64,000 nt of DNA from Gari tellinella. Its lineage: Eukaryota; Mollusca; Bivalvia; Cardiida; Psammobiidae. Below are positions 1-64,000 of the stretch, piece by piece; within the stretch, counting starts at the first letter, position 1; each line of letters starts with the position of its first letter. Both the position numbers and the translations under genes were made by a program. The stretch covers positions 43,694,189-43,758,188 of the forward strand of contig OV277869.1 of the NCBI GenBank assembly GCA_922989275.2, written 5' to 3'. Below the pieces are notes generated by a model. The model was not told the origin of the DNA. It was given only the letters and a program-made list of their open reading frames with translations, and did no database searches.

Positions 1-187
1 TCACTCGTCAATTTATTTATTCTATCAAAATGTCCACTTATTTGTGACAATGAGAAAAACAGCAGACGACAAATTTAAGCAAATAACATTGCAGCCGTGA
101 ATAGGTTGGACATAATTTACCTGTTTAAGTAAATGCGGCAATGGTCGTTGTAAGGAGGGAGTCAATGTTTGGGAGGGCACTGTATAA
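1..187 (+). mobile_element. TA-E MITE, right half, cut by the window edge
   Basis: The segment matches the right halves of the TA-E copies at 38.1, 51.2 and 60.9 kb: a TCACTCGTC start, an AACAGCAGACGACAA stretch, GTTGTAAGGAGGGAGTC, and a GGAGGGCACTGTA end flanked by TA. The left half and central hairpin lie outside the window. Non-coding; a Tc1/mariner-like origin is inferred from the TA flank. Confidence 0.75.
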
Positions 188-344
188 GAAGCTAATACTT
201 TTTTCATGGTCTTCTATATACAGAATACAGTTCATGGTTGGTAAAGTTATTGCTTCATGCATACAATGGTTCTTGGTCCTACGAGATTGCTTCTCCAGGA
301 CTAGACAAATGATTAAAAAGTTTGGAGAAGGAATAAGTGATTAA

Positions 345-599
345 TTAACCTGTTACCCCATAAATACACCTTTTTATGCCACTATTTATTCATCCACTAA
401 AGAAAATATCTCCAATTTAAACAGTCATGAATATGCGCCATATGAAATGTTTTCTATAAACTTGAAAATGGTAACTTAAAGCAGGCTAAAAGTAAAGCAT
501 AATCAGCCTTTAGGCGCATTCTCCTTTATTTTCATCCTGCTTGAAGTGATCACCTGTCTTCAAAACAAGAAACGAGGTATGGAGTAAGGGGTGAAGTTA
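345..599 (-). mobile_element. TTAA-A MITE
   Basis: Starts TTAACCTGTTACCCCATAA and carries a degraded module-1 hairpin (AAAGCAGGCTAAAAGTAAAGC against CATCCTGCTTGAAG). The distal end, GGAGTAAGGGGTGAAGTTA, is a decayed form of GGGTAATGGGTTAA. TTAA flanks and CCC ends suggest a piggyBac-type non-autonomous element (inference). Confidence 0.8.
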
Positions 600-610
600 T
601 CAGTAGTCAA

Positions 611-845
611 GTAACCGATTACCTAGTAAATAAACCTTTTTTACGCCTGTAATTTATGTCTCCACTGAAGAAAATAGTTCAATTTAATACAGTAAAGAAT
701 ATGTAACATAAAATATTTTAATCTTTAATCCTAGCAGACGGTAGCTTATAGTAGGCTTAAAGGTGCATTCTGCTTTACTTTCAATTTTCTTTCAAGCAGT
801 CACAAATCTTCAAAACTAGAAACAGGCTATGGGGTAATGGGTTAA
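611..845 (-). mobile_element. TTAA-A MITE plus flanking half copy
   Basis: Runs from ACCGATTACCTAGTAAATAA to GGGGTAATGGGTTAA. The hairpin has lost much of its left arm. Directly behind it, at 846-928, lies a further half copy (AGGTGCATTCTGCTTTACTT into ACCTGTCGTCAAAACTAG), so two copies were inserted together or one inside the other. Confidence 0.75.
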
Positions 846-939
846 AGGTGCATTCTGCTTTACTTTCAACCTGCTTTAGTGGTAACCTGTCGTCAAAACT
901 AGAAAAATCATCAGCAGCTAGGGGTTACATATAAATAAA

Positions 940-957
940 TTATATATATATATATAA
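940..957. repeat. (TA)n microsatellite
   Basis: An uninterrupted run of about eight TA dinucleotides between two MITEs. Confidence 0.9.
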
Positions 958-961
958 TGGT

Positions 962-1212
962 TTAACTCTTTGAACCCTAGTCCCGCATATAGGCGTGCTT
1001 TTCAAACAGTGTACATGTGAATAGTACACATGTCCTATGCAAACAGTGAAGACCCAGATGAGAGGGCTCCGAAAGGAGCCCTCTGATCAGGGTCTTCACT
1101 GTTTGTCACAATGCCAAAAATTTACAAAAACAACCCTTTAAAGTCAGAAATGGACTAGACTAAAATGGAAACTGGAATTGTCCATTTAAAGTTTCAGGGA
1201 GGAAAGAGTTAA
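962..1212 (-). mobile_element. TTAA-C MITE, complete
   Basis: Bounded by TTAA on both sides. Contains a long near-perfect module-2 hairpin (GCAAACAGTGAAGACCC / GGGTCTTCACTGTTTG with GGGCTCC / GGAGCCC arms). The right end GGGAGGAAAGAGTTAA is the reverse of the family start. It matches the copies at 13.6 and 17.1 kb closely along its length. Confidence 0.9.
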
Positions 1213-1877
1213 AGCAAACTTGATGCTGATATTTTGAGCATGGGTGAAGAGAGAGTCTACTGTGTAAGACTTTCATTTCCATAAATGTATTACAGTTGAA
1301 GTGTTAGATGAGGTGTTAAATGTATTCCTGAATGGGAGTTACAATCCAGATAAAATTTATATCAAAAGATGATTTTCTGCCGGAATCACTCCCATGTGTA
1401 TGCTTAACAGTATAAAGCAGAAAGATATTAACCCTTATAGTGCCTGAAGCATTGCTAGACTGGTATCCATATCTTTTACAAATCTAGATCAGACATCCAG
1501 AGAGTAGACTGTGTCTCAAAACAGAATTAAGAAAAAACTTTGATATACATAAATTAGATAAAAATTTGATTTGTAGTTAGTTTGTAAAATCTAATATTAT
1601 CTAATTTAGAAGTATGATAAGAGTTTAAAACAAGAAGTCATTGTCATAGGCTTTCTCGATTGTGATTTTTGTAGATGCTCCTAAAAGACTGTTGTAAAAT
1701 TCTGTTGCCTTGACAACAGCAATGTAGGTACTGAGATTTTTAAATTATTTTTATAAGACATTTACCAAGATTCTGCTTGTTGAGCAATTTACATTCTGAG
1801 GTGAGGTAATATTGTTTTTTATAACACTGTGAATTCTGAATATATTTTATTATTACCGGTATATGAGTTTCTAGGAT
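1213..1877. other. No feature recognised
   Basis: AT-rich sequence with many stops in all frames. I see no splice-bounded open frame, hairpin or repeat shared with the rest of the window, apart from short TTAACCC-like strings. Confidence 0.6.
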
Positions 1878-2057
1878 TTAAGTCTTAGCATGCCAAACAG
1901 TTTTGATCGTGATGAGACGCCACATTATGCTGCATCTCATTAGGATCAAAACAGTTTGACACCCTGATAAGAAAACTTGAACTTTTTGGTTTTACAGCAG
2001 AAGCAGGTAACAATCTGTTGCAGCTGACAATACGTAACTTGGCATTAAAATAGTTAA
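1878..2057 (+). mobile_element. TTAA-B MITE, diverged
   Basis: TTAA at both ends. The core hairpin pairs CAAACAGTTTTGATC with GATCAAAACAGTTTG around GAGACGCC / GCATCTC. The right end keeps GCAGCTGACAATACG, the family's GCAGACGACAATTG segment. Confidence 0.75.
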
Positions 2058-2337
2058 TAACTAGCACAATGCATACAGTAAACCTCCATTATTTGTAAGT
2101 TATTCTAGAATATAGGACTCCAAATCCAGTGAAAACAGTTGAAATTAATTTAGTGGTCAGGCCGATGGTGTTAATATGCTTGAATTATGTAAAGCACAAA
2201 AGAAATACAGTTAATACTCTGCTATTATGACCAATCAAAAGATAGGCTTGGCTGCAAACTTCAGAACAGGTGGTTTCTCAAAGCAAATTGAAAGTAAGCC
2301 AGAAACAGAGCTCCAGTTAAGGTGCTTCTTTCAGAAA

Positions 2338-2551
2338 TTAACCCTTAGCCTGCCACTCACAACTATAGCTCCATATGCAAACAGCTTGGATCCGGATGAG
2401 ACGCCGAGTAACTCGGCGTCTCATCCGGATCCAAGCTGTTTGACACTCGGACAACTTTTACAGCAATTTTGAGCAACTTTGAAGCACTTTGAAACTTGTA
2501 ACAGACGAGAAATATAGCAGACGACAATTTATTTGGCGGGCTAAGGGTTAA
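2338..2551 (+). mobile_element. TTAA-B MITE, subfamily B2, intact
   Basis: A 214-bp unit from TTAACCCTTAGCCTGCC to GGCGGGCTAAGGGTTAA. Its hairpin has about 32 perfectly paired bases per arm (CAAACAGCTTGGATCCGG...) with a single central base. By eye it differs at about five sites from the inverted copy at 38,595-38,808, so this subfamily moved recently. Confidence 0.92.
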
Positions 2552-2643
2552 AATCCTTATGCCTCCGTCAGACCCTATGTTATGACCACTCATTACAATC
2601 GTTGAAACGAAGTGACGGCATGAAGGAGAAAAACGTTGCAATA

Positions 2644-2837
2644 TTAACCCATTGACCCATAGCCTGTTTCTAGTTTTGAAGATAGTTGACCACTTAAAGC
2701 AGGTTGAAAGTAAAGCAGATGCGCCTTCAGGTGTATTCTGCTTTATTTTCAGCCTGCTTTAAGCTTTTATTTGTTAGAATATAGAAAATATTTCTTAAAG
2801 ATTCTTATTTGTGACAGTATAAATTTGAATTATTTTT
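2644..2837 (+). mobile_element. TTAA-A MITE, left part (split by an insertion)
   Basis: Begins TTAACCCATTGACCCATAGCC, contains the module-1 hairpin, and reaches the family's GACTGTATAAACTGGAACTATTTT segment, where it stops abruptly. The missing tail (TTCAGTGGAGGAATAAATT through GGGTAATGGGTTAA) resumes at 3,892-3,949. The Helentron-like element between them is therefore younger. Confidence 0.9.
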
Positions 2838-3891
2838 AGCTCACCTGAGTTAGCTCAGGGTGAGCTTTTGCAATCCTTGAATGTCCGTCGTTCGTCGTCC
2901 GGCGTCAACAATTTAATTGTTTACACTCTAGAGGCCACAATTTTAATCCAATCTTTCTGTTACTTGCTCAGATTGTATATTACCATAAGAGTTCGGATGA
3001 GTTTGATTATGGTTGAAATCGGACCAATAGGTCAATAGTTATCTACCTTTAAATTGCTGAAAATGCCATATTTAACAGTGTTTACACTCTAGAGGCCACA
3101 ATTTCAATTTAATCTTTCTCAAACTTGCTCAGATTGTATAAAACTAGTAGGGTTCAGATGAGTTTAATTATGGTTGAAATCTGACAAATAGATCAAGAGT
3201 TATCTACCTTTGAATTGCTGAAAATGCCATATTCAACAATGTTGACACTCTAGAGGCCACAATTTTTATCAAATCTTTCTTTTACTTGCTCAGATTATAC
3301 ATTATCATAAGACTTTGAATCAGTTCGATTATGGTTGAGATCTGACCAATAGGTCAAGAGATGATCTACCTTTGAATTGCTGAAAAAGTCATATTTAACA
3401 GTGTTTACACTCTAGAGGCCACACTTTTTATCCAATCTTTCTTAAACTTGCTCAGATTGTATATGACTATAAGAGTTCAGACGAGTTGGATTATGGTTGA
3501 AATCGGACAAATAGATCAAGAGTTATCTGCCCTTGAATTGCTGAAAATGTCATATCTAACACTCACTGTTTACAGTTTTCAATGGATTGCACACAATGTA
3601 TATAGCTATAAGTTCTTGAGGGAGTGCAATTATTGTTGAAATCTGATAATTGTATCTGCCCTTGATATACTTTGAAATGCTAGAAAAGGCTTAATTTAAG
3701 TGTATTATTTAGACTCTAGTTATCTGCCCTTGATGTACTCTATAACTATACTAGATCATATTCCAATGTTGTTTGCATGCTATACTACAAATTTGAATGG
3801 ATTTAGAATAAAATGTGTGAAATTCAAAGGTAAAGCTATCAGGCTTCATTATAACAGGTGAGCGATATCAGGGCCTTCAGGCCCTCTTGTA
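2838..3891 (+). mobile_element. Helentron-like non-autonomous element 1, complete
   Basis: The 5' end folds as a hairpin (AGCTCACCTGAG / CTCAGGGTGAGCT). Its outer arm GCTCACCTG recurs inverted near the 3' end (CAGGTGAGC, 3,855-3,863). A second hairpin (AGGGCC / GGCCCT) and a CTCTTGT terminus follow. Inside are about four tandem ~160-bp core repeats starting TTTACACTCTAGAGGCCAC and containing GTTATCTACCTTTGAATTGC. Subterminal inverted repeats, a 3' stem-loop and T-rich insertion fit the Helentron/pearl class of bivalves (known from the literature; assignment inferred). No Rep/helicase is encoded. Confidence 0.75.
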
Positions 3892-3949
3892 TTCAGTGGA
3901 GGAATAAATTAATGACGTAAAAGGGTGTATTTTTGGGGTAATGGGTTAA
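3892..3949 (+). mobile_element. TTAA-A MITE, right part of the 2,644 copy
   Basis: Carries TTCAGTGGAGGAATAAATTAA and the terminal GGGGTAATGGGTTAA. It joins in register to 2,644-2,837 once the Helentron-like insert is removed. Confidence 0.9.
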
Positions 3950-4391
3950 TGGTTTAGGCACTGTTTTCAAGCTGAAGCCTTGCAGAAAGCTCCCTGTGGG
4001 AGTAACCGTATGTGCCGTAACCTTTAACACCATCAACCAATTCTTCTTCTTAGTGACAGTTAAGGTTTAACTGTTCATACAAGTCAGTGATCAGCCAAGA
4101 AGCCAGACTTCATGATTTAATAATTTTCACGTTGGTTACCAACAAATTTATCTTGGAGGGGGACTTGCAGACGACATGACACGTGGCTGAGATCGCCGCC
4201 TCACAAGTGGTGATAACCACACTCCAAGGACCAGACCAGAAGAAGCGGTTTTTGTCCCTTATTGAGTTTAATTGCTCCAGAAAATCAATTTTTATTTTCC
4301 GCCCTGAATTTAGAAATGCCCTGGAGGTCCCAAGACAGAAGATTGTGTATTGATTTGGCTTTAACCACATGCTGAACACAGGATTTGGTTT
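3950..4391. other. No feature recognised
   Basis: Mixed-composition DNA. A 99-codon minus-strand open frame (4,110-4,409) has no recognisable domain, no flanking splice sites and no usable context, so I do not call it a gene. Confidence 0.5.
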
Positions 4392-6742: not shown

Positions 6743-6773
6743 TTTTATATTGAAATTTGTATCAGCAAACAGT

Positions 6774-6832
6774 ATAGACTCTGATCGGATGCCGCATTAT
6801 GCGGCTTCTGATCAGAGTCTACACTGTTTGCC
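6774..6832. repeat. Module-2 hairpin, stand-alone
   Basis: GCAAACAGTATAGACTCTGATC pairs with GATCAGAGTCTACACTGTTTGC around GATGCCGCATTATGCGGC. I see no MITE ends around it. Confidence 0.75.
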
Positions 6833-7490: not shown

Positions 7491-7748
7491 GTAATTTCCA
7501 GAACTTTCTATTTAAGGACTACTTTTCTTAGTGTAGGAATAGTAAGCCACAATTTACAAGGTGTATTAATATGACGCAGAAATTGGCTATTTACTGCCTG
7601 AGTATAGGCTCAAACTTATAATAAGGTTGCAGTGCGCTGCTACAATTAAGAGATTACAACTCGATTAACTCACATTCTCATCTCCTTTTAAAACATTCAT
7701 TGAGTCAATTTAGCTTCAGAACAATTAAAGCACCTCATTTAGAACATA

Positions 7749-8062
7749 CAGTAAAACCTCTCCATTACTATACCAATAAAAAAAGGCTTATTGACTGCAA
7801 AAAAGACAGATGACAACTTAATGCAAGGTGAACGACTGAACGGTCACTTTCCTTTAAGCAGTCTCCTGCCTTTAACAACTGGCTCCAAGGTTATAAAGCT
7901 TATGAATTGAGTCTGAAGTCATTCTCAAGCATCTGATTGGTCAGATTTGAGCCTAGGCTCAAATCTGACCAGTCAAATGCTTGAGAACAAATTCAGACTC
8001 ATCTCAAATGCTTTATAACCATGAAGCTGGATAATTTACACAATATAATGGAGGTTTTACTG
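7749..8062. mobile_element. TA-F MITE with its own palindrome
   Basis: Ends CAGTAAAACCTCTCCATTA / TAATGGAGGTTTTACTG are inverted repeats flanked by TA, as in Tc1/mariner-like MITEs. The centre is a long palindrome whose tip is ATTTGAGCCTAGGCTCAAAT, with arms reaching TTATAAAGC / GCTTTATAA. Traces of the module-1 arm (CAACTTAATGCAAGGTGAA) lie to its left. Confidence 0.85.
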
Positions 8063-8491: not shown

Positions 8492-8746
8492 TAGGGCTGC
8501 CATTTCTCCGGATTTTTCCTAAATCTTCAGATTTTTTTCTAGTACATGGTAGCTTAAAGAAGGCTGAAAGTAAAGCAGAATGCGCCTTAAGGCGCATTCT
8601 GCTTTACTTCCAGCCTGCTTTAAGCAGCCACTTGTCAACAAAACTAGACACAGGCGATGGGGTAAAGGTATAATTCGTAAAATTGCACTTGAAAAATGCA
8701 CTTTTGGAAATCTTAGGATTTTTTATGTCAACTTATGGCAGCCCTG
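8492..8746 (-). mobile_element. H MITE with module-1 hairpin
   Basis: Ends AGGGCTGCCATTTCTCCGG and ATGGCAGCCCTG form the H inverted repeats. The middle is a full module-1 hairpin (GAAAGTAAAGCAGAATGCGCC / GGCGCATTCTGCTTTACTT). The same ends occur at 28.1 and 31.4 kb, where 6-bp target duplications are visible; here the duplication has decayed. Confidence 0.88.
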
Positions 8747-9229: not shown

Positions 9230-10870
9230 ACATTTCGTCACAACGGTGTTTCAGCCCTTTTTGCTCTCTAACACAAAGAGTTTTTATCGGATCTTCACCA
9301 AACTTGCAGTAAATGTTCTTTTATATAAAATCTAGGTACAGTTAAATTTCTACTTAAATCGAATAAGGCATGTAAGACGTTTTGCCCTTTATGTATTAAA
9401 AGTTGACTGTTTCAGCATTTTTTGCTCTCTAAAACAAGCATTTTTTAGTTGATCTTCACCAAACTTACTGAAATTGTTTATTATTATAAAATCTTGGTCC
9501 AGTTTGATTACTACTAAAATCGCATGTGGCATGTTTGCGTTTTTGCCATTTTTGTATTAAAAATGAGTGATTCAGCAATTATTGCTCTCTTTCACAAATA
9601 CATTTATTGGATCTTCACAAAACTTGCTGAAAATGTTCATTAGTATAAAATCTAGGTTTAGTTTGATAACTACTAAAATCGTATGAGGCATATCTAAGTT
9701 TTTTTTGCCCTTTATGTATTAAAATGACTGTTTTCAGCCAGTTTTTATCTCTAACACAAATTCTTTTTATTGAGTTTTCACCAAACTTGCTGAAAACTTT
9801 CATTGATATTAAATCATGGTTAAATTTGAATACTAGTAAAATCGCATAAGGAATGTCGGAGTAATTGCTCTTGAATTATTAGAAATGACTGTTTCGGCCT
9901 TTTTTGCTCTCTAACACAAAGAGTTTTCATCGGATCTTCTACAAACTTGCTGAAATTCTTAATTTATATAAAATCTAGGTCCAGTTTGATTATTACTAAA
10001 ATCCCATAATGATTGTCTGAGTTATTGCCCTTAATATATTAAAAAGGACTGTTTCACCATTTTTTGCTCTCTAACATAAATGCTTTTTATTGATTTTCAC
10101 CCAATTTGCTGAAAATGTTTATTAATATAAAATCAAGGTTAAGTTTGAATATTACTAAAATCGCATAATGTATATCTGAGTTATTGTCCTTTAATTATTA
10201 AAATATGACTGTTTCAGGTTTTTTTGCACTCTAACACATACAGTTTTTATCGGATATTCACCAAACTTGCTGAACATGTTTATAAATATAAAATATATCT
10301 CCAGTTCGAATAGTATTTATATCGCATAAGGCATGTCTGAGTTTTTTGCCCTTTAGTTATTAAAAATTAATGTTTCAGCATTTTTTGCTCTCTATCACAA
10401 ACATTTCTTTTCGGATCTTAACAAAACCTTGCTGAAATTCTTTATTTATACAAAATCTAGGTTCAGTTTGATTATTACTTAAATCGTATAAGGAATGTCT
10501 GAGTTATTGTCCTTTATGTATTTAGAAATACCTGTTTCACCATTTTTTGCTCTCTAACACAAATAACTTTTTTGTGATTTTCACCAAACTTGTTGAAAAT
10601 GTTTATTAATATAAAATCAAGTTCATAATCTTAACTACCAAAATCGCACAAGGCATGTTGAAGTTATTGCCCTTGAATGATTATAGATTGCATACTTCAG
10701 GCTTGTCAGCTTTCTGACTCAAACGGTTTTAATTGGATCTTCACCAAATTTGCAGAAAATAATATTGGATAAAAACTTAGTCCAGTTCTATGAATACCCA
10801 AATCGCCGAAGGCATGTTGGAGTTACGGTTCTTCAATTATTAAAAATTTGCTACTTCATCCTTATTTTAG
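9230..10870 (+). repeat. Tandem ~160-bp core-repeat array
   Basis: About ten monomers, marked by TTTTGCTCTCTAACACAAA at roughly 9,258, 9,421, 9,583, 9,745, 9,903, 10,064, 10,223, 10,383, 10,543 and 10,704. Each also carries GATCTTCACCAAACTTGCTG, ATAAAATCTAGGTCCAGTTT and CTGAGTTATTGCCCTTTA. Length and layout match the core repeats of bivalve pearl/Helentron elements (literature); no terminal hairpins were identified here. Confidence 0.85.
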
Positions 10871-14670: not shown

Positions 14671-14897
14671 TTAACTCTTTGCATGCTGGGTAATTTTTCC
14701 CATCTGCATCAATTCGTCTGCAACTATTCTAAAAATAGAATTTTCAAAAAAATAATTCCAAAAAAGCGTCAGTCTCAAACAGTTTGGATCGTGATGAGAC
14801 GCTGCGTTACCCGGCGTCTCATCTGGATCCAAACTGTTTGCAAATATATAATCACTGTAGAATATATTCGCCACTAGCATGGTAAGGACTCTGTTAA
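14671..14897 (-). mobile_element. TTAA-B MITE with longer flanking repeat
   Basis: Starts TTAACTCTTTGCATGCTGGG and holds hairpin CAAACAGTTTGGATCGTGATG / CATCTGGATCCAAACTGTTTG. GACTCTGTTAA is present on both sides (14,664-14,674 and 14,887-14,897), so the shared flank is 11 bp, longer than TTAA. Confidence 0.85.
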
Positions 14898-17029: not shown

Positions 17030-17497
17030 CTTCAAATTGCCTCATAGCCCGTTTTTAGTGTTGGAGACAGATAACTACTTACAGCAGTTTGAAATTAACT
17101 CTTTCCTCCCTGAAACTTTAAATTGACAATTCCAGTTTCCATTTTTGTCAGTCCATTTCTGACTTTTAAGGGTTGTTTTTGTCAATGTTTTGCATTATGA
17201 CAAACAGTGAAGACCCTGATCAGAGGGCTCCTTTCGGAGCCCTCTGATCTGGGTCTTCACTGTTTGCATAGGACAAGTGTACTATTCACATGTACACTGT
17301 TTGAAAAGGACGCCAATATGCGGGACTAGGGTTCAAAGGGTTAAAGCAGATTTCACCTGAAGGTGCATTCTGCTTTTATTTCAGCCTGCTTCAAGGTACC
17401 ATGGCATCTGCTAGAAATGTCTTATGGTGCATACTTTCGTGAAGGAATAAACTACAGGTGTGAAAAGGCATATTTATAGAGCAATAGATTGATGCAG
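17030..17497 (+). mobile_element. TTAA-A MITE split by a TTAA-C MITE
   Basis: Left part: CCTCATAGCCCGTTTTTAGTG to CAGCAGTTTGAAA. Right part from 17,345: AGCAGATTTCACCTGAAGG to GGCATATTTATAGAGCAATAG. The insertion lies in the hairpin arm, where GTAAAG had become TTAAAG. Confidence 0.85.
17095..17344 (+). mobile_element. TTAA-C MITE, complete, nested
   Basis: Nearly identical by eye to the copy at 13.6 kb over its 250 bp and bounded by TTAA on both sides. It is younger than its TTAA-A host. Confidence 0.93.
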
Positions 17498-17924: not shown

Positions 17925-18176
17925 TTAACCCTTTACCTCATAGACTGTTTCTAGTTTTGAAGACAGGTGACCACTTAAAGCAGGTTGAAAGTAAAGCAGA
18001 ATGTGCCTTAAGGCACATTCTGCTTTACTTTCAGCCTGCTTTAAGCTAAAATCTGCTAGGCTATATAAAATATTTGTAATAGTATTTGTTCATGAGGGTA
18101 TAAACTGGAACTATTTTCTTCAGCGGAGGAATAAATTAAATACGCTAAAAGTCGCTTCTATGGGGGAAAGGGTTAA
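17925..18176 (+). mobile_element. TTAA-A MITE
   Basis: TTAACCCTTTACCTCATAGAC to GGGAAAGGGTTAA. The last TTAA is also the first TTAA of the next element. Confidence 0.92.
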
Positions 18177-18934: not shown

Positions 18935-20085
18935 TAGTTCTGGTGCAAAGCTTTGGCCCATTGCTAGAAGATATAGTTATTCTGCAGAGCTGAACCAATT
19001 GCTATAAGATAAAGTTTTGCAATGAAGAAGAGACCTGTTGCAATAAGATACATGTTTGCTTTGAAGCTTGGGTCTGTTGCAATAAGATATAGGTTTGCTT
19101 TGAAGCTTGGGTCTGTTGCAAAAAGATATAAGTTTGCTTTGCAGCTTGGGTCTGTTGCAATAAGATATAGGTTTGCTTTGAAGCTTGGGCCTGTTGCAAT
19201 AAGATATAGGTTTGCTTTGAAGCTTGTGCCTGTTGCAATAAGATATAGGTTTGCTTTGAAGCTTTGGTCTGTTGCAATAAGATATAGGTTTGCTTTGAAG
19301 CTTGGGTCTGTTGCAATAAGATATATAGGTTTGCTTTGAAGCTTGAGTCTGTTGCAATAAGATATGAGTTTGCTTTGAAGCTTGGATCTGTTGCAATAAG
19401 ATATAGGTTTGCTTTGAAGCTAGGATCTGTTGCAATAGTATATAGGTTTGCTCTGAAGCTTAGGTCTGTTGCAATAAGATATGAGTTTGCTTTGAAGCTT
19501 GGGTCTGTTGCAATAAGATATAGGTTTGCTTTGAAGCTTGGGTCTGTTGCAATAAGATATAGGTTTGCTTTGAAGCTTGGGTCTGTTTCAATAAGATATA
19601 GGTTTGCTTTGAAGCTTGGGTCTGTTTCAATAAGATATAGGTTTGCTTTGAAGCTTGGGTCTGTTGCAATAAGATATATAGGTTTGCTTTAAAGCTTGGG
19701 TCTGTTGCAATAAGATATAGGTTTGTTTTGAAGCTTGGGTCTGTTGCAATAAGATATAGGTTTGCTTTGAAGTTTGGGTCTGTTGCAATAAGATATAGGT
19801 TTGCTTGAAGCTTTGGCCTGTTGCAATAAGATATAGGTTTGCTTTGAAGCTTCAATCTGTTGCAATAAGATATGAGTTTGCTTTGAAGCTTGGGCCTGTT
19901 GCAATAAAATATAGGTTTGCTTTGAATCTTGGGTCTGTTGCAATAAGATATAGGTTTGCTTTGAAACTTGGGTCTGTTGCAATAAGATATAGGTTTGCTT
20001 TGAAGCTCGGGTCTGATGTGATAAGATATACATGTAGTTTTACTTTGAAACTTGGACCTGTTGCATAAAGATATGTAGTTTTATG
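18935..20085 (+). repeat. 39-bp minisatellite, about 29 units
   Basis: The unit begins GCTTGGGTCTGTTGCAATAA and continues with GATATAGGTTTGCTTTGAA. The first three or four units and the last two are diverged; the middle ones are near identical. The period is 13 codons, so several frames on both strands stay open for over 100 codons (repeat ALKLGSVAIRYRF on +). There is no start context, splice site or codon bias to support a protein. Confidence 0.95.
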
Positions 20086-21155: not shown

Positions 21156-21203
21156 AGTTATCTCCCTTGCCAATAATGTATTCAGTTATCTCCCTTTGCA
21201 GTA

Positions 21204-21408
21204 CAGTAAAACTTCTCTATTACGACCACTAAATTGTGTTGAGTATTAGGTGTTTCTGACAGGTGACTGCTTAAAGCAAGGTGACAGTAAATCAGAAAGC
21301 TCCTGTAGGAGCTTTCTGTTTTACTGTCACCTCGCTTTAAGCTGTCACCTGTCTTTTATACACTCAATAAGCCTTCTTTTAAATGTCCGTAATAGAGAGG
21401 TTTTACTG
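21204..21408. mobile_element. TA-F MITE with module-1 hairpin
   Basis: CAGTAAAACTTCTCTATTACG / CGTAATAGAGAGGTTTTACTG inverted ends, TA on both sides. The core CTTAAAGCAAGGTGACAGTAA with AGAAAGCTCC / GGAGCTTTCT is the module-1 hairpin with altered arms. It sits ~55 bp inside the intron downstream of the exon. Confidence 0.92.
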
Positions 21409-21475
21409 TAACATTTTCAGTTATCTCACTCTGAAATGGTTTATTTTGTATTCATCTCCATGGCGATGTTTGTTT

Positions 21476-28113: not shown

Positions 28114-28321
28114 CAGGGCTGCCATTTCTCCGGAGTTTTTCTAAATCTTCGGATTTTTTTCCAGTACATCGTAGCTTAAAGCAGGCTTACTTACAACCTA
28201 CTTTAAGTAGTGGCATGTCAACAAAACTAGAAACAGGCTATGGGGTAAAGGTATGATTCGTAAAATCGCACTTGAAAAATGCAAATTTTAGGAATTTTCA
28301 TGTCAACTTATGGCAGCCCTG
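28114..28321 (-). mobile_element. H MITE, 6-bp target duplication TTGTGT, hairpin deleted
   Basis: CAGGGCTGCCATTTCTCCGG to TTATGGCAGCCCTG, with TTGTGT on both sides. The module-1 hairpin is reduced to CTTAAAGCAGGC / CCTACTTTAAG; the loop-proximal part is gone. Confidence 0.92.
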
Positions 28322-31391: not shown

Positions 31392-31646
31392 CAGGGCTGC
31401 CATAAATTTACATGAAAAATCCTAAGATTTCTCAATATGCATTTTTCAAGTGCGATTTTACGAATCGTACCTTTACCCCATAGCCTTTTTCTTGTTTTGT
31501 TGACATGCGACTACTTAAAGCAGGCTGGAAGTAAAGCAGAATGCGCCTTATGGCGCATTCTGCTTTACTTTCAACCTGCTTTAAGCTTCCATGAAATGGG
31601 AAAAAATCCGGAGATTTAGGAAAAATCCGGAGAAATGGCAGCCCTG
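31392..31646 (+). mobile_element. H MITE, 6-bp target duplication TAGTTA
   Basis: CAGGGCTGCCATAAATTTAC to AAATGGCAGCCCTG, flanked by TAGTTA on each side, with an intact module-1 hairpin (GGAAGTAAAGCAGAATGCGCC / GGCGCATTCTGCTTTACTTT). Confidence 0.93.
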
Positions 31647-35877: not shown

Positions 35878-36238
35878 AAGTAGCTTTCTGTTTTAATGTC
35901 ACCTTGCTTTAACCCATTACCCCATAGCCTATTTCTATTTTGAAGATAGGTGACTATACTTAAAGCTGGTTGAAAGTAAAGCAGAATGTGCCTTAAGGCA
36001 CATTCTGCTGTACTTTCAGCCTGCTTTAAGCTAAAACTTGCTAGGATATAGAAAATATTTCTTTTGGTATATTATTTATAAAGGTATAGTTTTGAACTAT
36101 TTTCTTCAGTGAAGGAATAAATTAAAAGCGAAAAAAGACGTATTTATGAGGTAATGGGTTAAGCAGTCATCTGTAGTAAACGCCTACAAATTAACACAAT
36201 TAGCACAATTTAGTGGTCGTAATTGAGTGTTTCTACTG
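35878..36238. mobile_element. TA-F MITE right part, split by TTAA-A
   Basis: Hairpin arm GCTTTCTGTTTTAATGTCACC with CTTGCTTTAA is interrupted, then GCAGTCATCTGTAGTAAACG and the end TTTAGTGGTCGTAATTGAG...CTACTGTA resume at 36,163. It matches the family copy at 21.2 kb. Confidence 0.85.
35909..36162 (+). mobile_element. TTAA-A MITE nested in the TA-F hairpin arm
   Basis: TTAACCCATTACCCCATAGCC to GGTAATGGGTTAA. Excision on paper restores CTTGCTTTAAGCAGTCATC, the TA-F arm, proving a TTAA duplication. Confidence 0.95.
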
Positions 36239-38594: not shown

Positions 38595-38808
38595 TTAACC
38601 CTTAGCCCGCCAAATAAATTGTCGTCTGCTATATTTCTCGTCTGCTTCAAGTTTCAAAGTGCTTCAAAGTTGCTCAAAATTGCTGAAAATGTTGTCCGAG
38701 TGTCAAACAGCTTGGATCCGGATGAGACGCCGAGTTACTCGGCGTCTCATCCGGATCCAAGCTGTTTGCATATGGAGCTATAGTCGTGAGTGGCAGGCTA
38801 AGGGTTAA
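38595..38808 (-). mobile_element. TTAA-B MITE, subfamily B2, intact
   Basis: Same 214-bp length and TTAA flanks as 2,338-2,551, in the opposite orientation, with about five differences by eye. Perfect ~32-bp hairpin arms. Confidence 0.93.
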
Positions 38809-45075: not shown

Positions 45076-45910
45076 ATGTTCTAGATGGGTTCCTGACCTA
45101 GTGTTGTTACTATTCAGCTTGCTGACCATACTTACTTCACACTTGGTGCTAATGTTCTAGATGGGTTCCTGACCTTGTGTTGTTTCTATTCAGCTTGCTT
45201 ACCAAACTTACTTCACACTTGGTGCTAATATTCTAGATGGGTTCCTGACCAATTGTTGTTTCTATTCAGCTTGCTGACCATACTTACTTCACACTTGGTG
45301 CTAATGTTCTAGATGGGTTCCTGGCCAATTGTTATTTCTATTCAGCTTGCTTACCATACTTACTTCACACTTGGTGCTAATGTTCTAGATGGGTTCCTGG
45401 CCAATTGTTATTTCTATTCAGCTTGCTTACCATACTTACTTCACACTTGGTGCTAATGTTCTAGATGGGTTCCTGACCAATTGTTGTTTCTATTCAGCTT
45501 TACTTCACACCTGGTGCTAATGTTCTAGATGGGTTCCTGACCAATTGTTGTTTCTATTCAGCTTTACTTCACACCTGGTGCTAATGTTCTAGATGGGTTC
45601 CTGACCAATTGTTGTTTCTATTCAGCTTTACTTCACACTTGGTGCTAATGTTCTAGATGGGTTCCTGACCTTGTGTTGTTACTATTCAGCTTGCTTACCA
45701 TACTTACTTCACATTTGGTGTAAATGTTCTAGACGGATTCCTGGCCAAGTTTTGTTACTATTCAGCTTTCTTACCATTCTTACTTCACACCTGGTGCAAA
45801 TGTTCCAGATGGATTCTTGACCAAGTGATGTTTCTATTCAGCTTGCTTACCGTTACTTCACACTTGTTGCTAATGTTCTAGATGGGTTCCTGACCAAGTT
45901 TTGTTACCAA
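45076..45910 (+). repeat. 76-bp minisatellite with 64-bp variant units
   Basis: About eleven units, each opening with ATGTTCTAGATGGGTTCCTG and closing with CTTCACACTTGGTGCTA. Three consecutive units (~45,460-45,650) lack the 12-bp GCTTACCATACT segment. Outer units on the right are more diverged. Confidence 0.95.
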
Positions 45911-48176: not shown

Positions 48177-48629
48177 TTAACTACTCTAAGCATGCAGCAG
48201 TGAAACCATGATAACCCTAATTCAAAACAGTTTTGATCCTGTTGAGACATTGCGTAATGCCACATCATGTTGATAAGGCATGGAAGTGTTTGAATTTTTA
48301 TAACTTTAGAAAGTTCTATTTAAAGAACAGGGGCCCCGTTTCATAAAACTTCGTACCACAAATGTTGTTGTAAGTCAGATTATAAAAGTCTCAATTATTA
48401 GTTATTTCTCCATCTAATTCTGTCTTGTGACATCTCTTTGAAATAGTCTTTTCAAGACGATTCCAAAGAGATGTCACAAGACAGTATTAGATGGAGAAAT
48501 CAGAAATTAAAAGTATTTTAAAGTTTTGACTTACGACCGTTTTTGTCGTACGAAGTTTTATGAAACTGGCCCCAGTAGCAAGCAGACAACAATTGTGCAG
48601 ACAAAAAAGCTACCCAGCAAGCAGAGAGT
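48177..48629 (+). mobile_element. TTAA-B MITE split by the X element
   Basis: Left part: TTAACTACTCTAAGCATGC, hairpin CAAAACAGTTTTGATCCTG (worn), to TTTAAAGAACAG. Right part from 48,573: CAGTAGCAAGCAGACAACAATTG to CCCAGCAAGCAGAGAG. Confidence 0.85.
48331..48572. mobile_element. X MITE with module-3 hairpin, 3-bp target duplication CAG
   Basis: Ends GGGCCCCGTTTCATAAAAC / GTTTTATGAAACTGGCCC. The core palindrome GTGACATCTCTTTG...CAAAGAGATGTCAC has tip GTCTTTTCAAGAC and pairs like the D core. CAG flanks both ends; the TTAA-B consensus shows one CAG in the empty site. Superfamily not assigned. Confidence 0.9.
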
Positions 48630-49513: not shown

Positions 49514-49705
49514 CAGGGCTCCATATAAGGGGAGTATTTCAAAAACTAAAATCTTTATTTCTGCCTTAAACCCTATGGTGTCACTACTCATTAGAATCGT
49601 CTCGAAGAGACGATTCTAATGAGTAGTAACACCATAGGTTTTAGTGCTAAAACAAGTGAGAAAATGTTGGATTTGTTCAGTTCACTCCCCCTTATCTGGA
49701 GCCCA
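49514..49705 (+). mobile_element. D MITE
   Basis: CAGGGCTCCATATAAGGGG to TTATCTGGAGCCC, perfect hairpin CACTACTCATTAGAATCGTC / GACGATTCTAATGAGTAGT. Flanks GAGTTCAT / GAGTTGTT are a partial match. Confidence 0.92.
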
Positions 49706-49892
49706 TGAGTTGTTCAGAGTTGTTCACTTGGTCATGTTCAGTGCATTGATTTCACAATCATATGGTTCACAATACATCCTCCCTTGCAGTTCATTTTCTG
49801 TAGTTATTCATTCCTCCTTGAATGTCCACTTATTATTGAGCTCTTTCAACACCAAGGCATGGACCTGTTTTAAATACACTCTTTTACAATTG

Positions 49893-51058: not shown

Positions 51059-51668
51059 TTAGCTCTTTACTTCATGGATACTCATTGGATTACTTCTTCC
51101 ACTGAGTAAATAGTTCAATTCTATACAGCCATGAATAATGTATCATAATAAATGTTTTCTATACAGCACTCCCTCTCTACAACGAAAACCAATGGGAGAC
51201 ACTGATTGTGTGCGTTGTACGGAGGGAGTCGTTATAGAGAGGGAAAATTGGTTTACATTTGCAAACAGCTTGAATCCAGATCAGACGCCGCGTAACGCGG
51301 CGTCTGATCTGGATTCAAGCTGTTTGTCACTCATCATTAAGTATTTTTCTGTCAAAATGTTGAATATGTAATTTTGAGAAAAACAGCAGAAGACATCTTT
51401 AAGCAGATGATATTGCAGCAGTCAAAGCGTTAGACATAATTGTCCTGTAGGGAACTGTGACAAACGTCGTTGTAAGGAGGGAATTGTTGTTGGGAGGGCC
51501 GTTGTAGAGAGCGAGTGCTGTATTATAAAAGATGGTAACTTAAAGTAGGCTGAAAGTAAAGCAGAGTGCACATGTGCCTTATAATAGGGAGCATTCTGCT
51601 CTACTTTCAACAAGTTTTAAGCAGTCAACAATCTTCAATACTAGAAACAGGCAATGGAGTAAATGGTT
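51059..51668 (-). mobile_element. TTAA-A MITE split by TA-E
   Basis: Left part TTAGCTCTTTACTTCATGG to AATGTTTTCTATA. Right part from 51,521: TATTATAAAAGATGGTAACTT to GGAGTAAATGGTTAA. The family's TTTTCTATATTCTAGCAGATG segment is the empty site. Confidence 0.88.
51164..51520 (+). mobile_element. TA-E MITE, complete, with module-2 hairpin
   Basis: CAGCACTCCCTCTCTACAACG to CGTTGTAGAGAGCGAGTGCTG, TA on both sides. The centre is a perfect hairpin: GCAAACAGCTTGAATCCAG... with tip GCCGCGTAACGCGGC. Confidence 0.95.
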
Positions 51669-54318: not shown

Positions 54319-54333
54319 ATATTATATATATTA

Positions 54334-54579
54334 CAGTGGAGAATCTGTTATTCTTTCCCGTTTAAACGCAAACGTACGCAAACGCAAAGCACTAAAACGT
54401 AGAAAAGTACAACTTTTTGACAATTCTGATAATTCATCTTTATCTTGGTGGCAAACAGTTTGGAGCCTGATCAGACGCCGGGTTACCAGGCGTCTGATCT
54501 GGCTCCAAACTGTTAGCAGAGAAAATAAAAGTTTTAGCGTAAACGCGTTTATTGGGAAAGAATAACATTTTCTCCACTG
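54334..54579. mobile_element. TA-I MITE with module-2 hairpin
   Basis: CAGTGGAGAATCTGTTATTC / GAATAACATTTTCTCCACTG inverted ends, TA on each side. Core GCAAACAGTTTGGAGCCTG / CTGGCTCCAAACTGTTAGC with tip GACGCCGGGTTACCAGGCGTC. Outside the hairpin it carries AAACGCAAACGTACGC, pairing loosely with GCGTAAACGCG. Confidence 0.93.
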
Positions 54580-54777
54580 TACCAGTGACTGATATTACAT
54601 GTATAGCCTTCAAGTATTACTTATAAAAATGCCTTTTGATGCCTTTATATAGTTTTATATTCCTTATTACAGAAATGTTTTTATATATTACTTATGGACA
54701 CACCTTTTTATGCTTCCAACATATGAAGAGCTATAGGAACCTTACTACATGCAAATGAGACATGTTTTTGTAATGGC

Positions 54778-56750: not shown

Positions 56751-56753
56751 ATA

Positions 56754-58502: not shown

Positions 58503-58544
58503 TACTTTATGTTTCAATTTAACCCAACGGTGTGTATGGAATCA

Positions 58545-59945: not shown

Positions 59946-60138
59946 CAGAGCTTCAAATAAGAGGGGGTCTTTCAAGAACTAAAAATCTTTATCTCGCATT
60001 TAACCCTATGGTGTTACTACTCATTAGAATTGTCTATTCGAGACAATTCTGATGAGTAGTGACACCATAGGATTTGGTTCTGAAATGAGTGAGAAAATGT
60101 TGGATTTGTGCAGTTTCTCCCTTTTATCTGGTGACCTG
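59946..60138 (+). mobile_element. D MITE, 6-bp target duplication ATATGT
   Basis: CAGAGCTTCAAATAAGAGG to TTATCTGGTGACCTG, flanked by ATATGT twice. Confidence 0.92.
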
Positions 60139-60204
60139 ATATGTTGTGTTGTTACTACTCATTAAATCCTCTCTACAGCATAGTCAGTTTGATGAAGACC
60201 TATT

Positions 60205-60390
60205 ACTCTTTACCCCATAGCCTGTTTTGAAAACAAGATTGAAAGTATAAAGCAGCTTGCTTAAATCTGCTTATCTACAGTAAATATTTCTTATGGTATA
60301 ACCAAGACAGTATAAATTTAAGTGCAACCATTTTCTGTAGTCAAGGAACAAATAAAGACGTCAAAAATGCATATTTATGGAGTAATAATC
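60205..60390 (+). mobile_element. TTAA-A MITE, diverged
   Basis: ACTCTTTACCCCATAGCCTG with a collapsed hairpin, then ATATTTCTTATGG and ATATTTATGGAGTAAT. Confidence 0.75.
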
Positions 60391-60629
60391 TTTTCTAGAG
60401 ATTCTTTTCCTGAAATTACAAGTGAAGTCACAGCTTACAAAACCATAATTATGTTTATAATAGAATTGTTTGAAATTTAAAATAACTTTGAATTCAAATC
60501 TGGATTCTCTGATTAGTGAATATGTAGCAATATTTCCAATTAGAGGAAGTGCACATGTTTGCAGAGGTGTACTCATTATTTTTTACCTCCCTGCAGAAAC
60601 CGTAAATAAGTGAGCCAAAAATCTATTTA

Positions 60630-60830
60630 CCCATTGAACACTATATTATATATAATTATACAGCCCATTATGGAAGAGTATAATTGTCCCATGCAAACAG
60701 TGTAAACAGATCAAATGGCTTGATCTTGAGTCCTTGTTACAATCTGTTTGCATAGGACAAGTGTACTTTTTACAGGTACACACAATGTTTTTAAAGGACA
60801 AGTTATACTCATCTCTAAAGCTCAATAGGT
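60630..60830 (-). mobile_element. TTAA-C-like MITE, diverged
   Basis: TTGTCCCATGCAAACAGTGTAAAC and TTGCATAGGACAAGTGTAC keep the C hairpin flanks. The tip is worn. Confidence 0.65.
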
Positions 60831-60852
60831 CCACCAAACTTTACATTCAACT

Positions 60853-60904
60853 TCTCATTAGAATTGTTGCATAGGGTTTGAAGGAGACATAAGGATTTTT
60901 GAAA
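60853..60904 (-). mobile_element. D MITE fragment cut by TA-E
   Basis: TCATTAGAATTGTTGCATAGGG to GGATTTTTGAAATA, ending at the TA-E insertion. Confidence 0.65.
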
Positions 60905-60906
60905 TA

Positions 60907-61281
60907 CAGTGTTCCCTCCCTACATCGGCCCTCCCAGCAACGACTCCCTCCTTACAACACCCCTTGCCACAGTTCCCTAAACAGGACCATTAAGTTTAAC
61001 CCTTTTAGTGCTGCAATATAGTTTGCTTAAAATTGTTGTCTGCTTTTGTTTCTCAAAGTTACATATGAGTGGATATTTTGATAGAATAAATAAAATGAAG
61101 AGTGACAAACAGGTTGATCCAGATCAGACGCTGCGTCACTCAGCGTCTAACTAGGATTCAAGCTGCAAATGTTACTTATTATGTAAGTTTTAACTTTAAT
61201 TCCCTCCTTTTACAGACTCTCCCCGAACAACACACGCAATCTGTGTCTCCCATTGGGTGTCGTTGTAGAAAGGGAGCATTG
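60907..61281 (-). mobile_element. TA-E MITE, complete
   Basis: CAGTGTTCCCTCCCTACATCG to GTTGTAGAAAGGGAGCATTG, TA on each side. Hairpin GATCCAGATCAGACGC / GCGTCTAACTAGGATTC, outer arms worn. Confidence 0.9.
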
Positions 61282-61395
61282 TAGTTTCCATACGTGAAGT
61301 TCTGGTGAATGTTTGCTTAGAGCAGGTTTAACTGTAAATTTTACAGGGTCCTCAATTATTCAACAAGAAGACACAAAAAACATTAAAGCTTAAAA

Positions 61396-61617
61396 TTAAC
61401 TTTTATAGCGTTGGTGGTGAATTTATTTGCTTTTGCAGATATTGAATCAGGATCAGAATTATAAGCCGATATTCGTAAACTGAGTATCCCAGGTGTTTAT
61501 TAATCTGACTTCGATCATTTTACAATTCTTAAAATTTACAAAAGTTAGAGTCAACTTGAAACTTCAGCAGATGAAAACATAAAACAGACAGCATTTTCTC
61601 AGCATTCACGGGGTTAA
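61396..61617 (+). mobile_element. TTAA-B MITE, diverged
   Basis: TTAACTTTTATAGCGTTGGTG to CTCAGCATTCACGGGGTTAA, with a mostly lost hairpin. A TTTTGCAG/GTAAAC pair inside mimics a tiny exon. Confidence 0.7.
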
Positions 61618-61789
61618 ACAGATGCATACGGTAAAAAATCTAAAAAGGCCTGTGTTTGCATATCTAGCAGAGTTTCAATACATGAACATGGAAAAATTCA
61701 GGAACTCAGGAAGGTTTTGAATTTGAATGATACCAAGTCTTCCTCCCCAATAAATCCATGAAAAATATCTTGTGGCCCATTTTTGTTTT

Positions 61790-62267
61790 TCATGCAAATT
61801 TGTTTTGTTGGTGACCAATTAAAGCTTGTTGAAAGTCAAACAGAGTGTGTTTTAACCCTTTACTTCATAGCCTAGTTATAGTATTGCAGATAGGTTACTA
61901 CTTAAAGCAGGTTGAAAGTAAAGCAGAATGCACCCTAAGGCGCATTCTGCTTTACTTTCAGCCTGCTTTAAGCTATTACCAGCTAGAATAAGGAAAGTAT
62001 TAAATATGACACATATTCAGTACGGTTTATATTGGAACTATTTTCTTCAGCGGATGAATAAAATGCATGTGCTAAAAGTCGCTTCTATCAGGGAAAGGGT
62101 TTAGGTGTATTCTGCTTCACTTTGAGCCTACTTTAAGCTATCGTATCTGTTTGTATATAGAACATATTTCTTATGGTGCATTATTCATAACCATATAAAA
62201 AAGTGGAACTACTTTCTCAAGTGGAAGAACAAATCAAAGGTGGATTATCTATGGAGTCACATGTTAA
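61790..62267 (+). mobile_element. TTAA-A MITE hosting TTAA-A in its hairpin tip
   Basis: Left part GGTGACCAATTAAAGCTTG to AAACAGAGTGTGTT. Right part from 62,104: GGTGTATTCTGCTTCACTTTG to GAGTCACATGTTAA. Confidence 0.85.
61852..62103 (+). mobile_element. TTAA-A MITE, nested
   Basis: TTAACCCTTTACTTCATAGCC to GGGAAAGGGTTTA, full hairpin around GCACCCTAAGGCGC. Confidence 0.92.
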
Positions 62268-62313
62268 AGGTGCATGTGTTATTCAAAGGGTAACAGCATC
62301 ATGCAAGTCTTAG

Positions 62314-62440
62314 TTAACTCTTTCCTCCCTGAAAAGTTAAATGGACAATTCCAGTTTCCAATTTATTCTAGTCCATTTCTGACTTTTAAGGGTTGTTTTT
62401 GTCAATGTTTGGCATTATGACAAACAGTGAAGACCCTGAT
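62314..62440 (+). mobile_element. TTAA-C MITE, left half
   Basis: TTAACTCTTTCCTCCCTGAA to CAAACAGTGAAGACCCTGATC, cut in the hairpin. Confidence 0.85.
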
Positions 62441-62499
62441 CTGACCCTGAAAGACACCATGGTTCTAGATAAAACACTGTTTTGTTGGTGTTGGATCAA

Positions 62500-62693
62500 C
62501 AGGGCTCCAGTTAAGAGAGGGTAAACTAAGCAAATCCAACATGTTCTCACTCAATTTAGCACCAAAGTCTATGGTGTTACTACTCATTAGAATCGTCTCG
62601 AAGAGACGATTCTAATGAGTAGTGACACCGTAGGGTTTAATGCAAAAAATAAAGATTTCAATTTTTTAAATACTCCCCTTATCTTGAGCCCTG
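62500..62693 (-). mobile_element. D MITE, GATCAA/GATCAT flanks
   Basis: CAGGGCTCCAGTTAAGAGAGG to TTATCTTGAGCCCTG, perfect hairpin. The 6-bp flanks differ at the last base. Confidence 0.92.
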
Positions 62694-62989
62694 GATCATA
62701 CGGTGACACAGCCGCTTATGTTCAGGCATGCAAAGCATTATATGATAACAATTTTGTCGACATTTTCACCGTCTATGGTTGGGTCAAGATGGCTGCCACC
62801 CTTGGGGAATTCTGGGTAATCTGATTTTCTCCAGGAGATGATTTGATATTGTAGTTCGTGATATTTTTACCATGCTCTGTCTATGACCAAGATGGAATTA
62901 TTGAAGAAGCAGAAATGGAAGAGACATATGACATGTTGAGAAGTTCTAGTAGGTTCAAGTAGTACGTCCTGCTCCGTCTCGTCTCCCCT

Positions 62990-63017
62990 CCCCCCCCCCC
63001 CCCCCCCCCCCCCCCCC
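62990..63017. repeat. 28-base C run
   Basis: An uninterrupted homopolymer of C, preceded by CTCGTCTCCCCT. The exact length may be affected by sequencing. Confidence 0.9.
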
Positions 63018-63047
63018 TGGTTTTAGTTTGGAGACACCTGTGATCAT

Positions 63048-63198
63048 TTAACCATTGTTACCCTGTAGCTTGTTTCTAGTTTTGAAGACAGGTGACTATT
63101 CAATGCAGGTCAAAAGTAATGCTAAGGAGCATTTTTTCAACTGCTTTAAGTGGTCATCTGTCTCCAAAACTAAAAACAGGCTATGGTGTAATATGTTA
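63048..63198. mobile_element. Symmetrical short TTAA-A derivative
   Basis: CTTGTTTCTAGTTTTGAAGAC on the left is mirrored by TCTCCAAAACTAAAAACAGGC on the right, and both ends read TTAAC/GTTAA-like. The family's normal right half is absent; two left arms face each other. Confidence 0.75.
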
Positions 63199-63375
63199 AT
63201 TGAGAAAAAGACAAATTTGGAAATCTACCATTGAAGAAGCATAGAGATGATCCCTAATTAAACAGGCCCAGAATTCTTTGCAATAACTTTTTCTGAAGGT
63301 CTGCCCATGCTTTAAAAATCTCTTAAAAATATTTGTGTAACCCTTGCTGTGATAAAACAATATCAATACATCCTT

Positions 63376-63447
63376 TGCCAACAGTGTAGACCCAGATCAG
63401 AGGGCTCCTTCAGGAGCCCTCTGATCTGGGTCTGCACTGTCTGTCAC
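63376..63447. repeat. Module-2 hairpin, stand-alone, near perfect
   Basis: CAACAGTGTAGACCCAGATC, AGAGGGCTCC TTCA GGAGCCCTCT, GATCTGGGTCTGCACTGTC. Confidence 0.88.
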
Positions 63448-63973
63448 ACTTTTAGATATTGTTTGGACCAACCATAAATAGCCAGTTTTGGCAAATGATC
63501 AAGTCCATTACAGAACTTTAGCATTGGAAGAAGTGTAGCCTAAAACATACAGAAGATTAGGCTAGGAAAAATTCTATGACTCAAGGGAGTATTAAAAATT
63601 CAACATTTTATGGTTTTAAATTGAGAGGGATTTTTTTATGATTAATTCATATTGATTTCAGTATGGTTAGTGGTGTTTTCTACAGTGTAGGGAAACATTA
63701 TTGTAGTGATTTTGTCTTCAACTTGTATGTCTGGCTGTCTGAAGTTTGTTGCTGCAGTTTTGTCTGTCTATGTGCAGTTTTGTCCGTCTGATTGTCTGTC
63801 TGTCTGTCTGTCTAATCTTGCACTTCCAAAGATTAGTTGTAAATAATGCTCAACTCTTTCAGCACTAAGTAACTCTTGTGGGTTATTAGGATTCCTTGTG
63901 GAACTTTCAGGTACCAAAACGTGAACCAGCCTATTTGGGCTTCTGGGTAGTTTGATAACTACTGCTCTAAATT
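63448..63973. other. No gene; (GTCT)n microsatellite at 63,793-63,813
   Basis: A run of GTCT tetranucleotides lies in otherwise unremarkable DNA. Confidence 0.6.
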
Positions 63974-64000
63974 GGCAAACAGTGTAGACCCTGACCAGAG
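63974..64000. repeat. Module-2 hairpin, left arm cut by the window edge
   Basis: GCAAACAGTGTAGACCCTGA continues past the end of the window. Confidence 0.7.

What the first reader, a model, noticed from the sequence alone, without database searches (positions are those of the whole stretch)
1..64000. Three hairpin cores are shared by MITEs with unrelated ends
Module 1 (CTTAAAGCARGKTGAMAGTAA) sits in TTAA-A, in TA-F (21,204) and in H with 6-bp duplications (8,492; 31,392). Module 2 (GCAAACAG...CTGTTTG) sits in TTAA-B, TTAA-C, TA-E (51,164) and TA-I (54,334). Module 3 sits in D and in X (48,331). Inverted ends and target duplications (TTAA, TA, 6 bp, 3 bp) differ, so different transposases are implied, yet the cores look homologous. 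This suggests the hairpin is a separately acquired module (by nested insertion, template switching, or as an element itself) that makes an end pair successful. I know of no description of this modular pattern.
Basis: partly seen in the sequence, partly recalled or inferred. Interest (0 to 1): 0.88.

Follow-up and report, generated by a model that had tools for sequence, protein, structure and literature searches.

The report
Hairpin cores swapped between unrelated transposons
In this animal genome, likely that of the quagga mussel, three hairpin sequences recur inside small jumping elements with four different kinds of ends, so the hairpins were likely passed between element types and likely help whichever element carries them to multiply.

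Summary
They lie between four end classes (TTAA; TA; CAGGGCT with 6-bp duplications; GGGGCC), two cores per class, 8 of 12 combinations. Cross-class cores beat mirrored-shuffle palindromes; ends are alike within classes, hardly across. New: element Z has core 2 between X-like ends (one copy). Corrections: D makes 6-bp duplications; D and H ends are weakly alike; H and TA-E share much more than a hairpin, each holding the core plus one side of a TTAA element nearly or quite to its tip. Likely mechanism: pieces of nested MITEs were captured between other ends, flanks decayed, hairpins were kept in amplifying lineages. Core change on internal branches is 0.21 (TTAA-A), 0.07 (TA-I), 0.09 (TTAA-J) of spacer change; five other families show no significant effect. 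Coral CMITEs (PMC2872659) already show TTAA families with different inverted ends sharing an internal region, so the pattern is not wholly new; I found no report of sharing across target-duplication classes. Whole-genome tests could not be run.

The parts
17925..18176 (+). TTAA-A element, M1 core at 17974-18045; one of 14 full-length copies listed for the window
17095..17344 (-). TTAA-B element, M2 core at 17201-17266, inserted in a decayed TTAA-A copy
14671..14897 (+). TTAA-C element, M2 core at 14776-14840
2338..2551 (+). TTAA-G element, M2 core at 2378-2442; second copy at 38597-38808
6765..6831 (+). M2 core of TTAA-J type (flank of the J family on one side)
21202..21410 (+). TA-F element; its 96-bp palindrome (21258-21353) is the M1 arm plus TTAA-A's left flank, mirrored
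35909..36162 (+). TTAA-A copy sitting in the TTAA of the hairpin of a TA-F copy (TA-F matches at 35879-35912 and 36159-36238)
8492..8746 (+). H element, M1 core at 8552-8625 plus TTAA-A's left side to 5 bp from its tip
31392..31646 (-). H element, M1 core at 31514-31585, 6-bp target duplication TAGTTA
28114..28321 (+). H copy that has lost most of the hairpin
51162..51522 (+). TA-E element, M2 core at 51262-51326 followed by a TTAA-C/G-like right side
54332..54581 (+). TA-I element, M2 core at 54454-54514, flanks unrelated to the other families
49514..49706 (+). D element, M3 core at 49567-49643; one of 12 full-length copies listed for the window
48330..48573 (+). X element (GGGGCC ends), M3 core at 48404-48500

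Best explanation
Three homologous hairpin cores sit inside small DNA transposons of four end classes, and they likely got there by capture of pieces of one MITE between the ends of another, after which the flanks decayed and the hairpin was likely kept because lineages with it multiply better. Shown: core homology across classes; free combination of ends and cores; in H and TA-E the captured piece is the core plus one side of a TTAA element up to or within 5 bp of its tip; TTAA elements are found inside M1 hairpins of other elements; in TTAA-A and TA-I the core changes much less than spacer and, on internal branches, less than the terminal repeats. Inferred: that TTAA elements were the usual donors (in the M2 tree the TA cores lie among TTAA cores and Z beside TTAA-B, support 91-93, below the 95 level); that nested insertion followed by one-sided deletion or by repair made the chimeras; that TA-I, TA-F, Z and D/X are older captures with decayed flanks; that the advantage acts on amplification, and acts alike for different transposases, so would work through host replication, repair or the DNA structure itself. 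Across M2 families the paired positions change together and almost never through a G-T step, which fits upkeep of a DNA palindrome by copying one arm from the other.
Against: Constraint is not significant in TTAA-B (0.50), D (0.81), TA-F (0.80), TA-E (0.67), TTAA-C (0.73), and J would not survive correction for eight tests; terminal ratios are also below 1 in all eight families, so misaligned spacers or different mutation rates may add to it. D's terminal repeats are more conserved than its core. Outside the core no donor flank is left in TA-I, TA-F, Z or D/X beyond chance (lowest p 0.04 among several comparisons), so capture is inferred there from H and TA-E. Z rests on one copy, X-like M3 on two. 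The data do not reject one origin of all TA cores (p-AU 0.54). Some M2 elements have only 1 or 2 places in the sample, and two coreless inverted-repeat elements (L009:4097, L015:1199) have 21 and 31.
Confidence: 0.6

Rival explanations
1. The hairpin is itself a mobile element that inserts into MITEs and elsewhere.
For: In TA-I, Z and D/X the similarity stops at the palindrome edges. The M1 palindrome of TTAA-A starts and ends with TTAA plus one base (C-TTAA...TTAA-G), like a fully palindromic TTAA insertion. 23 of 209 module palindromes have no listed ends on either side, several M1-like ones in the window among them (29154, 33890, 39043, 41846).
Against: M2 copies show no constant duplication at their edges by inspection. 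TA-F's palindrome runs 12 bp beyond the TTAA into TTAA-A-like flank on both sides. H and TA-E carry one-sided donor flank. Some endless cores belong to further MITE families (L012:2755 has TTAACCCCTTCACTGCC ends).
Confidence: 0.15
2. Ectopic gene conversion or template switching between hairpins, started by breaks or stalls at the palindromes, spreads and homogenises the cores among elements.
For: TA-F's symmetrical extension of TTAA-A's left flank looks like copying of one arm onto the other. In TTAA-A 20 of 20 two-sided changes are complementary (9.7 two-sided expected by independence). Galileo shows chimeric copies put down to exchange among copies (PMC3573991, passages).
Against: Each family has its own core variants, so exchange between families is not frequent now. 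Terminal-branch changes do accumulate in cores. In D only 5 of 11 two-sided changes are complementary, against 12.9 two-sided expected.
Confidence: 0.2
3. Plain common descent: one old element carried the core and its ends drifted until they suited other transposases.
For: TTAA-C and TTAA-G are homologous end to end and TTAA-B and TTAA-J share flanks on both sides, so within the TTAA class this is what happened.
Against: Target duplications differ in length (TTAA, TA, 6 bp) and cross-class ends show almost no similarity, while the same ends hold different cores (TTAA-A/B, D/H, X/Z).
Confidence: 0.05

Closest known systems
CMITEs of Acropora corals (PMC2872659; abstract, sections 10 and 14 and passages read)
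   Same: Six TTAA MITE families with different TIRs share a 75-base internal region more conserved than the TIRs; the authors suggest a role in transposition; TIRs begin CCCTTT as in TTAA-A and TTAA-B here.
   Different: One duplication class (TTAA, piggyBac-like), about 1600 copies estimated in A. millepora; the words palindrome and hairpin do not occur in the text. Here the cores cross four end classes and one alone has over 200,000 matches. Whether the coral region is akin to M1-M3 could not be tested: the figure is not held.
Chimeric Galileo copies in Drosophila mojavensis (PMC3573991, passages)
   Same: Ends of one subfamily with the internal region of another, put down to exchange of sequence.
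   Different: Within one transposon family; the two-TIR chimeras lack matching duplications. Here the chimeras cross duplication classes, are repeated families, and H has duplications in 4 of 5 copies.
P-MITEs of Anopheles gambiae (PMC1562414, passages)
   Same: The authors propose that internal sequence comes from ectopic repair and that a stable secondary structure may give a transposition advantage.
   Different: No hairpin shared between duplication classes is described in the passages seen.
T2-type MITEs of Xenopus (PMC6004289, seen as a search listing only; details recalled)
   Same: Very abundant, long-lived TTAA MITEs.
   Different: Recalled as sharing ends, not cores.

Membership tests
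piggyBac-like TTAA MITEs (TTAA-A, B, C, G, J) | TTAA target duplication at both ends | tested here: met
   Consensus and most listed copies start and end with TTAA
piggyBac-like TTAA MITEs (TTAA-A, B, C, G, J) | CC[C/T]T terminal motif (as given in PMC2872659) | tested here: inconclusive
   A, B and G begin CCCT; C begins CTCT and J CCCA
piggyBac-like TTAA MITEs (TTAA-A, B, C, G, J) | an autonomous transposase with the same ends | not tested
   the PF13843 search did not complete
pogo/Tigger or other TA-class MITEs (TA-E, F, I) | TA duplication with CAG-type tips (recalled) | tested here: met
   TACAGT or TACAGC tips in the consensus
pogo/Tigger or other TA-class MITEs (TA-E, F, I) | matching transposase | not tested
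   no transposase search was answered
hAT-like MITEs (D, H) | 5-8 bp duplication, mostly 8 (recalled) | tested here: inconclusive
   6 bp, perfect in 8 of 23 and 4 of 5 copies
CMITE pattern | internal region more conserved than the TIRs | tested here: inconclusive
   TIR/spacer on internal branches exceeds core/spacer in TTAA-A, B, TA-I, TA-E and J, not in D (0.27 against 0.81), TA-F (0.79 against 0.80) or C (0.46 against 0.73)
CMITE pattern | sequence homology of the internal region to the coral one | not testable with these tools
   coral sequences not held
Rfam structured RNA | match at gathering score | tested here: not met
   0 matches in the window

The most novel reading that the evidence does not exclude
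The hairpins are transferable amplification cassettes: a palindrome that any terminal-repeat pair can pick up and that makes a cut-and-paste element multiply whatever its transposase, by acting on the host's replication or repair (excision from one sister and refilling from the other, or re-replication at a cruciform). About a fifth of this genome would be the product of a few such cassettes shuffled among ends.
Probability: 0.25. Interest if true: 0.87.

Novelty: new variant of a known kind. Interest (0 to 1): 0.63.

Why it matters
Why a few MITE families reach hundreds of thousands of copies is an old open question, usually put down to the ends and the transposase. Here ends and cores are separable and recombined in nature, and the core is the better conserved part in the two best-sampled families, so the question becomes testable: swap the hairpin between end pairs and measure amplification. 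It also warns that repeat libraries that classify MITEs by whole-element similarity will merge elements of different transposases; the published quagga assembly reports 27.7% unclassified repeats and 3.5% DNA transposons (PMC13015404, passages).

Tried and rejected
Chance or convergence: rejected. M1, M2 and M3 as one ancient module: no support. Hairpin as an insertion hotspot: 11 of 239 TTAA-family ends (about 120 elements) abut an M1 arm, against 215 of 3191 TTAA sites beside such an arm; no enrichment. Known RNA: 0 Rfam matches. Exact M1 and M2 patterns in viral contigs: 0 and 0. Literal M2 strings in papers: 0 papers. Whole elements shared between TTAA-A and TA-I type: no. De novo inverted-repeat scans gave many false pairs inside cores and were repeated with termini inside cores or listed families dropped, 48 and 96 candidate pairs; one search dropped only those inside palindromes. 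An earlier rate test on fewer copies gave the same picture (TTAA-A 0.27, TA-I 0.13, B 0.33, D 0.81, TA-F 0.80, TA-E 0.68), as did a count of shared and private variants, where private variants in TTAA-A were even higher in the core, 0.0128 against 0.0073.

Literature searches behind 'no report found'; only open-licence PubMed Central papers.
Full report
What was checked. The window lies in a 1,597,604,326-base assembly of 80 contigs. Size and 16 chromosome-sized contigs (67-122 Mb) fit the published quagga mussel assembly, 1.61 Gbp and 16 pseudomolecules (PMC13015404, passages); this identification is likely, not shown. I used the window, 25 stretches of 10 kb from 16 contigs, and in some analyses eight 3-kb loci around M1 hits.

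The palindromes. With an arm score of 16 or more there are 186 in 264 kb, 55 of them in the window, against 0 in one Markov-1 simulation of the window; single linkage puts 173 of 186 into three groups of 76 (M1), 74 (M2) and 23 (M3). At score 14 there are 231 in 314 kb: M1 92, M2 92, M3 25, other 22 (window alone 30, 20, 13 and 2). An M1 30-mer with up to two mismatches occurs 235,588 times forward and 235,777 reverse in the genome; the reversed control gives 0.

Ends and cores. Consensus sequences were built for five TTAA families, TA-E, TA-F, TA-I, H and D; X rests on two copies and Z on one. Both ends could be assigned to one class for 137 of 209 module palindromes: M1 with TTAA 43, TA 8, H 5; M2 with TTAA 31, TA 29, GGGGCC 1; M3 with D 18, GGGGCC 2. 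The other 72 had one listed end, mixed ends or none. A listed end motif turns up in 10 of 200 simulated flanks. So each of the four end classes holds two of the three cores. Terminal 40 bp were compared for all 66 family pairs: TTAA-A/B, B/C, C/G, B/J and X/Z beat every one of 200 shuffles; D/H, TA-E/TA-F and TTAA-B/G reach p<=0.05; across classes only H/X (beats all) and D/TTAA-B (p<=0.05) stand out, both with low scores. D and H share the CAGGGCT tip and 6-bp duplications, perfect in 8 of 23 and 4 of 5 copies.

Core homology. Cross-class cores score far above mirrored shuffles in most pairs: 64 for TTAA-A/TA-F, 90 for TTAA-C/TA-E, 95 for TTAA-C/TA-I, 50 for TTAA-B/Z. D/X (39) was matched by 1 of 300 and Z/TA-I (25) by 2 of 300. 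The gapless D/X comparison, 66 of 97, exceeds the maximum of 54 in 20,000 pairs.

How far sharing reaches. H contains TTAA-A from base 6 of its left end through the core (134 of 162 identical including a short, weak stretch beyond, p 0.08). TA-E contains M2 and the right side of a TTAA-C/G-like element to its last bases (140 of 191). Outside the cores these are significant on one side only. TA-F's palindrome takes in 12 bp of TTAA-A-like left flank on both sides. TA-I, Z and D/X share the palindrome only (lowest flank p 0.04 among several comparisons). Among M2 cores (35 of the 92, at most seven per family), TA-E and TA-I fall in with TTAA-C and TTAA-G (support 93) and Z with TTAA-B (91); both are below the 95 level, and one origin of all TA cores is not rejected (p-AU 0.54).

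Is the core kept? Copies were collected by their flanks alone, a tree was made per family, and changes were counted by parsimony. Core-to-spacer ratios on internal and terminal branches: TTAA-A (80 copies) 0.21 and 0.48; TA-I (31) 0.07 and 0.80; TTAA-J (8) 0.09 and 0.60; TTAA-B (15) 0.50 and 0.49; D (25) 0.81 and 0.66; TA-F (12) 0.80 and 0.52; TA-E (11) 0.67 and 0.66; TTAA-C (10) 0.73 and 0.93. The internal-terminal contrast is significant in TTAA-A (2e-5) and TA-I (4e-6), marginal in J (0.047), absent in five. In TTAA-A and TA-I the terminal repeats are not conserved (1.10 and 1.99 of spacer); in D they are (0.27). I read this as selection among source lineages, strongest where the sample is largest; misaligned spacers may add to it. 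Across ten M2 variants 16 of 31 pairs change on both sides and 36 two-sided changes face 4 one-sided ones, which speaks for a DNA palindrome repaired arm from arm rather than an RNA helix drifting through G-U pairs (inference).

Does a core go with success? Among TTAA and TA inverted-repeat elements found without reference to families, 24 with M1 have a median of 94.5 related places in 314 kb and 31 with M2 a median of 33; 34 without a core have a median of 11.5 and split into 17 with at most 4 and 17 with at least 19 (p 0.011). Of the latter 17, 15 were dropped from or called similar to listed families; L009:4097 and L015:1199 were not. M3 elements in that scan (2) had 4 places each, and two M2 elements only 1 and 2. 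The 12 families' sequences match 21.7% of the 250 kb outside the window. This is correlation, not cause.

Known and new. Coral CMITEs show the same kind of thing within the TTAA class (PMC2872659), Galileo shows chimeras within one family, and the P-MITE paper proposes ectopic repair plus a structural advantage. I found no report of one hairpin shared by MITEs with TTAA, TA and 6-bp duplications (searches, open-licence papers only). Family labels beyond the CC[C/T]T motif are recalled, and no transposase was searched because the machine did not answer.

Noticed in passing
window 35879-36238: A TTAA-A copy is inserted in the TTAA of a TA-F hairpin: a live example of the nested stage from which chimeras could arise.
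   Followed up: partly
window 7747-8062 (palindrome 7895-8014): A fourth palindrome type (TTGATTGGTCAGATTTGAGCCTAGGCTCAAATCTGACCAATC), four members, lies between TA-F-like tips beside a decayed M1.
   Followed up: no
window 19035-20030: Tandem array of a 39-bp unit, 25.5 copies, directly beside a D element.
   Followed up: no
window 2918-3561, 9247-10760, 45076-45905: Tandem arrays of units of about 161, 160 and 76 bp.
   Followed up: no
L012:2755: M2 core in a further TTAA family with TTAACCCCTTCACTGCC ends, which look like the TIR that the coral paper gives for CMITE family VI (CCCTTTCACTGCCA).
   Followed up: no
window 14776-54514, M2 copies of TTAA-C, TTAA-G, TA-E; also older TA-I copies (L010:8880, L021:5158): A CACTC motif often follows the M2 hairpin on one side, as if the module had a short polar tail; not tested statistically.
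   Followed up: no
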